Below are positions 60,522-64,000 of a DNA stretch of 64,000 bases, in pieces (position 1 is the first letter of the stretch; each line of letters opens with the position of its first letter). The stretch comes from Clostridia bacterium. GTDB lineage: Bacteria; Bacillota; Clostridia; Christensenellales; CAG-138. The DNA is taken from the NCBI GenBank assembly GCA_017523925.1, contig JAFWVQ010000066.1:1-64000 (forward strand). Reading direction: 5' to 3'. Position numbers and translations under genes: made by a program. Below the pieces are notes generated by a model. It was not told the DNA's origin. It saw only the letters and a list, made by a program, of their open reading frames with translations, and searched no databases.

Positions 60522-60550
60522 TTGCACGAGCTGTTTCGTTGTGTTATAAT
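60522..60550 (+). promoter_or_regulatory. promoter of the RyR / channel cassette
   Basis: TTGCAC (60522-60527), 17 bases, TATAAT (60545-60550). The start codon is 225 bases away, so a long leader of pyrimidine-rich sequence is predicted; no known riboswitch is recognised in it. Confidence 0.75.
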
Positions 60551-60774
60551 CCTATACAGTTTGAGTTTGCAATCCACATTGATGGATCGTATGCCGTGCT
60601 CGGTCGAGGTCGGCGATTTGCGTTTTCTCCCGACCTTGCGTTTTTTCTTTTCCCATGCACTCGGCTTTAGAGCTCTCGGCTGCACTTTATGCCGGCGTTT
60701 CTACGGTTGCTTTCGTTTCCCCCATTGTCTCCCGACTCTCCCGTCCCGCTCATCCGCAGCAAGGAGGTTTTTCA

Positions 60775-62604
60775 ATGATTTGGTTCATTTTCTTTGTTTT
60801 GGCGCTGCTAACCTTTGTCGCAGCCCTTGTTTTTGCATTCGCGCTGCATAAACGCAGTTCACGAAAGGGAATGATCCTTACGCCGACGAACATTATCTTT
60901 GCAGGCGTACTGCTTTCTGCAATCATGATATTCATCCCCATCTACGGCAGTGCAAACAGCGGCACAGGGCCATTCGGCACGTTCCTTCTTTCGGTCCACA
61001 ATATGCTGCGCATATTCGTTATCGACGGCGAGCTTTCCTTCGTTTCCGAAGGGCTCCGGTCCTGCCCCGACGGGCTGCGCATCCCATATTTCATACTCGC
61101 AGCATTGCTGTTCGTTGCTGCCCCGATGCTGACCTTCGGTTTTTTGCTTTCGCTTTTCAAAAATTTCAACGCGATAAAGAAGTATTCCCTCAAGTTTTTC
61201 AGGCCGATGTATTTATTTTCCGATCTAAATGAAAGATCCATCGTGCTTGCAGAGAGCGTTTTTGAGGAGGAGAACAGAAGGCGCCGCGCCGGTACGGCCG
61301 ACTCTAAAAAGCCGCTTATGGTTTTCGCCGGCTGCAGCAAAGAATCCGAGCAAAAGCTGATCGACCGCGCGAACGCCATAGGAGCCGCCTGCTTTGATAA
61401 GGATATCTCCGCCCTGCGTCTCAATTTTCACAGCAAAAAAGCTCCCGTCAAGATCTTTGTGATCGGTGATGACGAATCCGGGAATGTGGACACTGCTTAT
61501 GAGCTTTTTGAAGCCTACAAGGATCGCAGCCACACCGATCTCTACTTTTTCTCCGCAGAGCCCAAATCTGAGGCTCTCGTGGCGCACGGCAAACCGGGCA
61601 GGATCTGCATCCGCCGCATAAATGAGGCGCGCTCGTTCATCTACCATCTGCTGTACAGCGACGGCTTCCGTCTCATCTATGAAAGCGCAGCAGAGCTCGA
61701 TCACGTAAAGCGCATCAGCGCCGTCGTTATCGGCATGAACAGCTTCGGCTTCGAGATGGCGCGCGCCTTGCCTTGGTTCTGCCAGATGGATGGTTACCGT
61801 GTTGAAGTACGCGTTTTTGACAGCAACGAGAACGCGTTTGACCGTTTCCGCGCCCGCTGCCCCGAGCTGCTCGACGATGAGCACAACGGCAATTTCAGCA
61901 ATGATAACGATGCGCAGTATCTGATCGCAATCACCGGCGATTGCGATTACCAGGCTGCAAGCTTTTATGAAGCGCTGAAGTCCGCCGGCAGCGCAACCTT
62001 TGTTTTTATTGACACCGGTGATGACGCGCTGAATACCAGACTTGCCTTCGATCTGCGAATTCAGTTCAAGCGCATGGGCGTTATGCCGATCATCTGTCCC
62101 ATGCTGGACAACCCAAACGAAAGCGCGATGCTCGATGGAGTTACCGATTACAGGGGTAATCAATACGATATCAGCTTCGTGGGTGATATCACGAAGCGCT
62201 TCTCCTCTGAGGCCGTGATCGCCTCCGAGCTTGAGGAGGAAGGACTCAGGCTCCACACGAAGTGGAACAATGGCAGTGCTGCCGTGGATCCAGATAAGCA
62301 CAGGCAGAATTTCTACACCTACGAATACAACTATATGTCGTCCATCGCAAGCGTCATCCACAGCAGGATGAAGCGGCTTTGCAAGCTGCCCGGTATCGAG
62401 CTCGAGCCGGACGCGAGGAAGCCGAGTGACCGTTGCCGCATACGAACAATAGAGCACCGCCGTTGGAATGCCTATATGCGCGCCGAGGGTTTCATTTACA
62501 GCGGCTCACACGAGCGCAGCTCAAGGGACGATCTTGCCAAGATGCATAACTGCCTGCTGTCTTACGACCTTGTTGACGAAAGCTACAAGTCTAACGATGA
62601 TTGA
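60775..62604 (+). CDS. membrane protein with Rossmann-type (TrkA-N-like) region and C-terminal RyR domain
   Basis: 609 aa. Three membrane helices (about 1-24, 39-60, 115-140), a cytoplasmic part with two nucleotide-fold-like regions (KPLMVFAGCSKES near 183 and AVVIGMNSFGFEMARAL near 320, the second with a G-x-N-x-x-G turn) and a C-terminal RyR domain (about 556-605): EHRRWNAYMRAEGF, then DLAKMHNCLLSYDLVDES. RyR motifs occur in animal ryanodine receptors and in scattered bacterial proteins. AAGGAGG 7 bases before ATG 60775. It lies 47 bp before a channel gene, so it is probably a sensor or regulator of that channel. Confidence 0.8.
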   Translation: MIWFIFFVLALLTFVAALVFAFALHKRSSRKGMILTPTNIIFAGVLLSAIMIFIPIYGSANSGTGPFGTFLLSVHNMLRIFVIDGELSFVSEGLRSCPDGLRIPYFILAALLFVAAPMLTFGFLLSLFKNFNAIKKYSLKFFRPMYLFSDLNERSIVLAESVFEEENRRRRAGTADSKKPLMVFAGCSKESEQKLIDRANAIGAACFDKDISALRLNFHSKKAPVKIFVIGDDESGNVDTAYELFEAYKDRSHTDLYFFSAEPKSEALVAHGKPGRICIRRINEARSFIYHLLYSDGFRLIYESAAELDHVKRISAVVIGMNSFGFEMARALPWFCQMDGYRVEVRVFDSNENAFDRFRARCPELLDDEHNGNFSNDNDAQYLIAITGDCDYQAASFYEALKSAGSATFVFIDTGDDALNTRLAFDLRIQFKRMGVMPIICPMLDNPNESAMLDGVTDYRGNQYDISFVGDITKRFSSEAVIASELEEEGLRLHTKWNNGSAAVDPDKHRQNFYTYEYNYMSSIASVIHSRMKRLCKLPGIELEPDARKPSDRCRIRTIEHRRWNAYMRAEGFIYSGSHERSSRDDLAKMHNCLLSYDLVDESYKSNDD

Positions 62605-62651
62605 CGGTCAAATCCGTCCACGTATCAATACTTCGTTCAGGAGGAAAACCG

Positions 62652-64000
62652 GTGAAACCAAAGCTCAAGGAATTGAAAAGCAAGCTCGTGGAGTGGTTCA
62701 GCATCAAGCGGGCGAAGAATCCCCGCATGATCGTGTTGCTGTTCATCCTGCTTATCAACATCGTATTCTGGAGCATCTCAGCGTTTCTGATAAGCAGACT
62801 CGCTCTTTCCGGCACCGAAGGCATGAGCTTCTGGGAGGCGGCGTACTACACCGTCACCATGATCCTCGACGCAGGCTGCATCCAGTTCGTAATTGCTGAC
62901 ATCGGCGCTTCGGGCGTTGCCATTGCCATAATCTGCATGGTAATAATCCTGCTCGGCATGATCCTGTTCACGGGCGCCGTAATTGGTTACGTTACCAACT
63001 ACATCTCCAGCTACATCGACAATGCCAATTCCGGCACAAGCAGGCTCAAGGTCTCCGGGCATCTGGTGATCCTCAACTGGAACACACGCGCTTCGGAGAT
63101 CGTGAACGATCTATTGTACTGCCCCGGCAAGCAGGTTGTGGTGGTGCTCGTTGACGATCGCAAGGCAGAGATCCAAAAGGAGGTCAACGAGCGCATTGCA
63201 CACACGATTGCAAAGGAAAACGCCGATTTGAGAAAGGATCTTAAGGGTCTCGGCTTTCTCAGGAGCGAATACCGTTTTCTCAAGAACAGACTCAAAAACA
63301 ACATCACTTTGATCGTTCGCGAAGGTGATGTGTTCTCATCCAAACAGCTTCATGACATCTCGCTTGAAAGATCACGCTCGGTGGTCATCCTCGGCAGCGA
63401 TATCAACAATTCCGTCTGCCGCTTCGAGAATCTGGACCGCATAAAGGCCGCCTCTCGCGGCAATGCGCAAACAGTTAAGACCCTAATGCAGGTTTCTGAC
63501 ATAACCGCCGCAGAGTATTCGGACGACAATCAAAAGATCATCGTTGAGATCACCGACGACTGGACGCATGATCTCGTTGAGCGTATCATCCGCTACAAGG
63601 TCGGCGATACTGACGAAAGCGAGCAGCGGAATAAATGCAATATCGTGCCTGTTCGCGTAAACCAGATACTTGGCCAGATCCTCTCCCAGTTCTCGCTCAT
63701 GCCTGAGCTCAACTACGCATACAGCGAGCTGTTTTCAAACAAGGGCGCCACCTTCTGCGTTAAGGACTTCCAATGCGAGAACGATGTGGAATACATCTCA
63801 AGCTATCTTGAAACGCATCCAAACGCCCTGCCGCTGACCTCGATGGCGGCGCGGAAGGATGGCACCAGGCAAGGTCACTTCTACTATTCCGCCGAGGATC
63901 AGCGGGATATCGACACCAGGGCGACCGTTGCGGACACCGGCTACCGCGTTAAGCTCAACCACAGATTCCATATGTCCAGCAAGAACGTTGTCATCCTCGG
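62652..64000 (+). CDS. CASTOR/POLLUX-like ion channel (3' end beyond the window)
   Basis: 449 codons to the edge with no stop. GTG start 62652 with AGGAGG 7 bases before it. Two membrane helices (about 26-48 and 84-106) flank a pore helix (EAAYYTVTMILDAGCIQF), whose DAG resembles the ADAGN filter of plant CASTOR/POLLUX channels and not the GYG of K+ channels. The cytoplasmic part begins SGHLVILNWNTRASEIVNDLL, an RCK-like fold typical of that family, and a second such unit starts at KNVVILG at the edge. It is probably a ligand-gated cation channel working with the RyR protein. Confidence 0.82.
   Translation, partial: MKPKLKELKSKLVEWFSIKRAKNPRMIVLLFILLINIVFWSISAFLISRLALSGTEGMSFWEAAYYTVTMILDAGCIQFVIADIGASGVAIAIICMVIILLGMILFTGAVIGYVTNYISSYIDNANSGTSRLKVSGHLVILNWNTRASEIVNDLLYCPGKQVVVVLVDDRKAEIQKEVNERIAHTIAKENADLRKDLKGLGFLRSEYRFLKNRLKNNITLIVREGDVFSSKQLHDISLERSRSVVILGSDINNSVCRFENLDRIKAASRGNAQTVKTLMQVSDITAAEYSDDNQKIIVEITDDWTHDLVERIIRYKVGDTDESEQRNKCNIVPVRVNQILGQILSQFSLMPELNYAYSELFSNKGATFCVKDFQCENDVEYISSYLETHPNALPLTSMAARKDGTRQGHFYYSAEDQRDIDTRATVADTGYRVKLNHRFHMSSKNVVIL

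What the first reader, a model, noticed from the sequence alone, without database searches (positions are those of the whole stretch)
60522..64000. RyR-domain protein next to a CASTOR/POLLUX-like channel
The first gene joins membrane helices, Rossmann-like regions and a C-terminal RyR domain; the second is a channel with a DAG filter like plant nuclear calcium/potassium channels. The two are 47 bp apart behind one good promoter and a 225-base leader. RyR domains in bacteria have no well-settled role; a pairing with a channel suggests a small-molecule gated ion-flux system, maybe for stress or phage response.
Basis: partly seen in the sequence, partly recalled or inferred. Interest (0 to 1): 0.78.

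Follow-up and report, generated by a model that had tools for sequence, protein, structure and literature searches.

The report
TIR-linked ryanodine-receptor-domain ion channel genes
A gut bacterium carries a two-gene unit that couples a membrane protein bearing the ligand-binding domain of animal ryanodine receptors to a plant-type calcium channel; because relatives of the first gene repeatedly sit beside enzymes expected to make cyclic ADP-ribose, this looks like a bacterial "signal molecule opens an ion channel" device, probably used in defence or stress.

Summary
Gene A (60775-62604, 609 aa) and gene B (62652 to 64817, past the window) form a two-gene operon ending in a terminator.

A ends in a divergent RyR domain. 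All four ligand-contact residues of the phage cADPR-cleaving RyR protein RyDEP align (A: H561, W564, H591, D608). The rest of A is a channel-like membrane part plus a double RCK gating-ring fold, closest to CASTOR/DMI1 (Z 18). B is a bacterial CASTOR relative (profile E 1e-46) with the DAG filter.

The pair recurs: A next to B in two other genomes (reversed order), and A-TIR-permease-B in one operon in a third. More striking, A relatives sit beside TIR genes in 12 of 38 loci (0.3 expected), and in three genomes a TVGYGD K+ channel is fused to the same RCK-RyR module and encoded beside A and a TIR gene.

Best explanation: A is a receptor or channel subunit for a TIR-made ADP-ribose signal; B adds a pore. 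Ligand binding, gating and defence are inferred, not shown. An unheld 2025 preprint on TIR systems might already cover this.

The parts
60522..60550 (+). putative promoter: TTGCAC - 17 bp - TATAAT with extended -10 (TGT)
   Evidence: read directly; perfect -10, weak -35 (3 of 6); below the threshold of the consensus scan
60551..60774 (+). about 224-nt leader; no structure beyond chance, no Rfam family
60761..60767 (+). ribosome-binding site AAGGAGG of gene A
   Evidence: read directly
60775..62604 (+). gene A, 609 aa: channel-like membrane part - double RCK - C-terminal RyR domain
   Evidence: family profile hits RyR structures; AlphaFold2 model pLDDT 93, pTM 0.88
60775..61200 (+). A residues 1-142: helices 2-26, 37-59, short 65-81 and 87-96, long 99-139; membrane part laid out like an inner-pore domain, without a conserved selectivity filter
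   Evidence: GsuK channel aligns over model residues 22-491
61201..62220 (+). A residues 143-482: two Rossmann/RCK lobes, gating-ring fold
   Evidence: DMI1 Z 18.2, CASTOR Z 17.9, KtrA 17.3, TrkA 16.9
62386..62601 (+). A residues about 538-609: RyR (R12-type) domain; H561, W564, H591, D608 = RyDEP H75, W78, H100, D117
   Evidence: alignment with phage DyoEdafos gp78; conservation in 71 homologues
62652..64000 (+). gene B, CASTOR/POLLUX-like channel (721 aa; continues to contig position 64817, L001:4652-6817)
62859..62891 (+). B filter region TMILDAGCIQF (approximate coordinates)
   Evidence: read directly; conserved in A-linked B homologues

Best explanation
Genes A and B form a ligand-gated ion-flux unit. 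A is a membrane receptor/channel-like subunit: its RyR domain binds an ADP-ribose-type nucleotide (most likely a cyclic ADP-ribose isomer made by a TIR protein), its double RCK ring passes the binding on to the membrane part, and the CASTOR-like channel B is the dedicated pore that conducts (Ca2+ or other cations). In relatives the TIR gene is encoded next door, or the RyR-RCK module is fused straight to a K+ channel pore; in this genome the TIR enzyme would be one of six encoded elsewhere. Purpose: to change membrane potential or ion content on infection or stress, as in TIR/Thoeris defence. Shown: domain make-up, conserved ligand residues, gene linkage. Inferred: the ligand, the gating, the A-B contact and the defence role.
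For: All four RyDEP ligand/catalytic residues align in A; in 71 A relatives H561 is kept in 70, W564 in 71, H591 in 71, D608 in 69. RyDEP-family RyR proteins bind or cleave 2'/3'cADPR (PMC13232231). TIR beside A: Pfam TIR_2 within 3 kb of A in 12 of 38 loci versus 0.30 expected; 17 of 130 nearest neighbours match TIR_2, while TIR is not in the top-25 list of 113 control genes 4-5 genes away; TIR hits fall from 33/286 at gene distance 1 to 11/255 at 2 and about 1% further out. A-B linkage in three further genomes, including the operon A - TIR - permease - B (L112). K+ channel fused to RCK-RyR beside A and a TIR gene in three genomes, with the same residue spacing (H456, W459, H481, D498); its cytosolic part is homologous to all of A's (probability 99.2). 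A's RCK fold matches CASTOR/DMI1, KtrA, TrkA and GsuK. Six TIR_2 matches in the window's own genome.
Against: No TIR beside the window pair. B is absent from 143 of 147 A loci, and most B genes stand alone; the nearest B relative (65% identical) has no A within 620 bp upstream. No profile similarity between A and B, so a shared complex is not supported by homology. A's pore-like loop is not conserved as a filter. The window is not in a recognised defence island, and neither gene has a PADLOC hit. The other recurrent neighbours (Card1-like nuclease, AAA-M41 protease, permease) leave room for other signals such as cyclic oligoadenylates.
Confidence: 0.55

Rival explanations
1. A is the self-sufficient TIR effector: it forms its own (possibly poorly selective) pore or a membrane-disrupting oligomer when its RyR domain binds the TIR product, and B is a convenience partner or passenger.
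For: Most TIR-linked A genes have no B; A has a channel-like membrane layout with a long helix running into the RCK ring, as in GsuK.
Against: No conserved filter in A; B linkage recurs more than chance and inside one A clade.
Confidence: 0.25
2. Housekeeping ion regulation: A senses the cell's adenine-nucleotide or ADP-ribose state through RyR and RCK (as TrkA/KtrA/GsuK sense ATP, ADP and NAD) and tunes channel B for K+/Ca2+ balance; TIR neighbours are a lineage-specific add-on.
For: RCK rings of GsuK and TrkA were solved with nucleotides bound (ADP, NAD, ATP-gamma-S; entries listed); many A genes have no defence-type neighbour (80 of 147 loci show none of the marker families); human RyR3 R12 binds adenine nucleotides (cited in PMC13232231).
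Against: Patchy distribution (65 of 297 genomes of the order) and strong TIR linkage are unlike housekeeping genes.
Confidence: 0.13
3. The RyR domain of A is an enzyme or sponge that removes the TIR signal (as RyDEP does), so that A limits rather than carries out the response.
For: Both RyDEP catalytic residues (H75, D117) are kept in A; small stand-alone RyR proteins also sit in these loci.
Against: Tested RyDEP relatives other than DyoEdafos did not cleave, and six of eight bound (PMC13232231); a signal eraser would not need fusion to a membrane RCK module or to a K+ channel.
Confidence: 0.07

Closest known systems
Thoeris TIR-effector defence (ThsB TIR + ThsA effector)
   Same: TIR gene beside a gene with a cADPR-binding-type module; two-gene units
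   Different: Effector here is a membrane RCK-RyR protein, with or without a channel, instead of the SIR2-SLOG or macro-domain ThsA effectors described in PMC11204291; no SLOG or macro domain in A; defence not tested
RyDEP (Mycobacterium phage DyoEdafos gp78) and PF02026 RyR/R12 domains
   Same: Same domain, same H-x2-W ... H ... D residues, direct alignment
   Different: RyDEP is a soluble phage counter-defence enzyme; here the domain is the C-terminus of a cellular membrane protein
CASTOR/POLLUX/DMI1 plant nuclear channels
   Same: B: profile E 1e-46, filter with DAG, double RCK ring; A: same RCK-ring fold, Z 18
   Different: No RyR domain or TIR partner in the plant channels as far as I know; A lacks the filter
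GsuK (Geobacter multi-ligand K+ channel), KtrA/TrkA
   Same: RCK gating rings that bind nucleotides; membrane part plus RCK order as in A
   Different: No RyR domain; no TIR linkage known to me
Animal ryanodine receptors
   Same: RyR R12 domain placed on an ion-channel polypeptide (bacterial channel-RyR fusion)
   Different: Different pore and gating architecture; bacterial form has RCK rings and one RyR copy

Membership tests
RyR (PF02026) domain | sequence/profile similarity to RyR domains | tested here: met
   Window A alone is below Pfam's cut-off, but its family profile hits RyR structures at E 1.6e-11; relatives and the channel fusion hit PF02026
RyR (PF02026) domain | ligand-contact residues H75, W78, H100, D117 of RyDEP | tested here: met
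   H561, W564, H591, D608 align
RyR (PF02026) domain | binds cADPR/adenine ligands | not testable with these tools
   needs binding assay
CASTOR/POLLUX/DMI1 channel (gene B) | tandem RCK gating ring homologous to CASTOR | tested here: met
   profile hit to CASTOR 6o6j over positions 124-653, E 1.3e-46
CASTOR/POLLUX/DMI1 channel (gene B) | filter with conserved D (AD[SA]GNHA) | tested here: met
   LDAGC in B and in A-linked homologues; the following NHA is not kept
CASTOR/POLLUX/DMI1 channel (gene B) | Ca2+-selective, Ca2+-gated conduction | not testable with these tools
   needs electrophysiology
Thoeris defence | TIR gene adjacent to effector gene | tested here: not met
   Not met for the window pair (TIRs lie on other contigs); met in 12 of 38 A-family loci
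Thoeris defence | effector is ThsA with SLOG or macro ligand domain | tested here: not met
   A has RyR instead; no Pfam, PADLOC or NCBIfam hit
Thoeris defence | protects against phage via TIR-made signal | not testable with these tools
   needs phage challenge
RCK/TrkA-type gating ring (gene A) | tandem Rossmann RCK fold | tested here: met
   model matches DMI1/CASTOR, KtrA and TrkA at Z 17-18
P-loop K+ channel (gene A) | TxGYG selectivity filter | tested here: not met
   no such motif; loop poorly conserved

The most novel reading that the evidence does not exclude
Bacteria have cyclic-ADP-ribose-gated ion channels: TIR proteins make the signal, the RyR domain on RCK-gated membrane proteins (A+B pairs, or K+ channels fused to RyR) reads it, and ion flux follows. 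This would be the prokaryotic counterpart of the disputed direct cADPR-to-ryanodine-receptor pathway, and a new TIR effector class.
Probability: 0.4. Interest if true: 0.93.

Novelty: new variant of a known kind. Interest (0 to 1): 0.8.

Why it matters
Whether cyclic ADP-ribose acts directly on ryanodine receptors has been argued for decades. Here the same RyR domain, with the same ligand residues, is built onto bacterial gating-ring membrane proteins and even a K+ channel, beside the kind of enzyme (TIR) known to make cyclic ADP-ribose isomers. That makes a direct ligand-to-channel test possible in a small, expressible system, and points to an ion-flux effector class for TIR signalling.

Tried and rejected
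Pfam, PADLOC and NCBIfam on the window proteins alone gave no usable hit; family profiles were needed. Searching Pfam PF02026 in the window genome and the control genomes rang nowhere and says nothing. Idea that A and B are paralogues: profile-profile comparison found nothing, although both resemble the CASTOR ring. AlphaFold2 model of B was poor because only four sequences could be supplied (pLDDT 49) and was not used. Search of PDB with the whole A model did not list RyR structures (long model, small domain), which is not evidence of absence. Leader as a riboswitch: no structure beyond shuffles and no Rfam family. First impression from the order sample that B never recurs beside A was wrong: the named-genome scan found three more cases. 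Plasmids: no A homologue. A 'phage' record with an A homologue (MT835673.1) is an unverified faecal scaffold with no B or TIR hit nearby, not taken as phage-borne. Literature: no held paper links bacterial RyR domains with TIR genes or channels; [quoted passage not shown]

Full report
What is there. The window ends inside a two-gene operon. Gene A runs from an ATG at 60775 (good ribosome site) to 62604, 609 aa; gene B starts with GTG at 62652, 47 bp later, and runs past the window to contig position 64817, 721 aa. A terminator follows B and the next gene faces the other way, so the operon has only these two genes. The promoter at 60522-60550 has a perfect, extended -10 but a weak -35, and the roughly 224-nt leader shows no structure or known RNA family.

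What gene A is. Alone, A has no library hit. A profile of its relatives hits solved RyR domains at E 1.6e-11. Aligned directly with RyDEP (DyoEdafos gp78), the phage enzyme whose RyR domain binds and cleaves 2'/3'cADPR (PMC13232231), the window protein keeps every ligand residue: H561, W564, H591 and D608 for H75, W78, H100 and D117. In 71 homologues these are kept in 70, 71, 71 and 69 sequences. The predicted structure is confident (pLDDT 93, pTM 0.88): membrane helices at 2-26, 37-59 and 99-139 with two short helices between the last two, then two Rossmann lobes, then the helical RyR domain. Its soluble part best matches the gating rings of the plant channels DMI1 and CASTOR (Z 18), then KtrA, TrkA and the GsuK channel, the last aligning from residue 22 on, membrane part included. 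So the 'Rossmann-like regions' are an RCK gating ring. A lacks a TxGYG filter and the loop that would hold it is poorly conserved; whether A itself conducts is open.

What gene B is. B's family profile hits CASTOR at E 1.3e-46 and DMI1 at 3e-40, and B has a DAG-type filter (TMILDAGCIQF). CASTOR's filter is AD265S(A)GNHA and its D265 is needed for current (PMC6697748).

Is the pairing real? A relatives occur in 65 of 297 genomes of the order and full-length B relatives in 11; only the window has them adjacent. A scan of about 85,000 named genomes for A returned 80 loci. Three of these carry B close by: L108 and L115 with B just upstream of A, and L112 with A, a TIR gene, a CitMHS-type permease and B in a row on one strand. 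About 0.016 such cases are expected by chance (Poisson 7e-7 for three or more, ignoring relatedness). The four B-linked A proteins fall in one well-supported set of 15 that also holds several TIR-linked A proteins. So the pair recurs, in both gene orders, but is uncommon.

The stronger partner is TIR. In 38 A loci whose genomes were scanned for Pfam TIR_2, a TIR gene lies within 3 kb in 12, against 0.30 expected. Among 130 nearest neighbours of A, TIR_2 is the commonest family (17); it is not among the top 25 families of 113 genes a few positions further away. Over 147 loci the TIR rate falls from 33/286 at distance 1 to 11/255 at distance 2 and about 1% beyond (those detectors were seeded from A neighbourhoods, so the Pfam figures are the independent ones). 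Many are operonic, with gaps of a few bases or overlaps. TIR is absent beside the window pair, but the genome has six TIR_2 matches elsewhere, five above the Pfam cut-off.

RyR fused to a K+ channel. In three genomes of the order (one of them in the window's own family), a 2TM channel with the filter TVGYGD is fused to the RCK-RyR module, in loci that also hold A and TIR: L088 (TIR, A, channel-RyR), L084 and L076. Pfam confirms both ends of the L088 protein (Ion_trans_2 1e-13, RyR 4e-6). The four ligand residues are at H456, W459, H481 and D498, the same spacing as RyDEP, and profile comparison shows the whole cytosolic part is homologous to A's (probability 99.2, E 1e-19). Further relatives (457-482 aa, membrane-Rossmann-RyR) occur without TIR neighbours in other families of the class.

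How it most likely works. TIR proteins turn NAD+ into ADP-ribose-type signals; the RyR domain of A binds one; the RCK ring changes shape; the attached pore, or partner pore B, opens. The domain make-up, ligand residues and gene linkage are shown here. The ligand, gating, A-B contact and defence role are inferred. Rivals are that A alone is the effector, that the pair is a housekeeping nucleotide sensor, or that RyR erases the signal. Recurrent Card1-like nucleases and AAA-M41 proteases near other A genes mean the family may serve more than one signal.

Novelty. RyR domains as cADPR binders (phage RyDEP), CASTOR-type channels and TIR-effector defence are each known. Their combination, an RCK-RyR membrane protein linked to TIR genes and to channels, was not found in any held paper or in PADLOC. 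One relevant preprint is not held. I file it as a new variant of TIR-effector signalling, not as Thoeris itself: the window has no adjacent TIR and the effector is not ThsA.

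Noticed in passing
L110:3329-4588, L017:2708-4030, L129:4712-5959, L157:1295-2560 and others: About 415-aa Card1-like CARF-PDDEXK nucleases lie within three genes of A in 10 of 147 loci, often with a ~157-aa protein of unknown family and a ~1160-aa AAA + M41 protease gene (14 loci); a second, possibly cyclic-oligoadenylate-linked, RyR context.
   Followed up: partly
L015:8071-8382, L027:7671-7949, L092:9328-9627, L105:6186-6473, L184:9807-10088: Stand-alone 92-103 aa RyR proteins (canonical PF02026) encoded in A loci, often next to TIR; the RyDEP H100 position reads T in the two that were aligned with RyDEP (L015, L092).
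   Followed up: partly
L073:8576-10840, L078:8256-10526, L030:6030-8318, L026:4741-7107: About 760-aa proteins with a RyR domain in mid-protein beside A-type genes; an HD-like N-terminus and a SLOG-like C-terminus are guessed by eye only.
   Followed up: no
L014:4839-5978, L112:11440-12582, L111:9797-10942, L127:6788-7984, near L145: CitMHS/NhaD-like permeases next to A (and, in some loci, TIR-BspA) genes; an ion/anion transporter as a third member of the module.
   Followed up: partly
L020:519-722 (G010 contig 15): Only the C-terminal end of B survives at a place whose next genes match those beside the intact B of G009 (L019): gene decay or loss of B within the genus.
   Followed up: partly
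G000 contigs 60 and 34 (L012:7642-10152, L045:7570-10245): The window genome has two further, divergent A-family proteins (836 and 891 aa) without B; no TIR hit was seen beside them.
   Followed up: no
L192:1288-1698 (Mycobacterium phage Aegeus gp81): A RyDEP relative (81% identical to DyoEdafos gp78) between phosphoribosyl-pyrophosphate transferase and nicotinate ribosyltransferase genes, annotated as hypothetical.
   Followed up: yes
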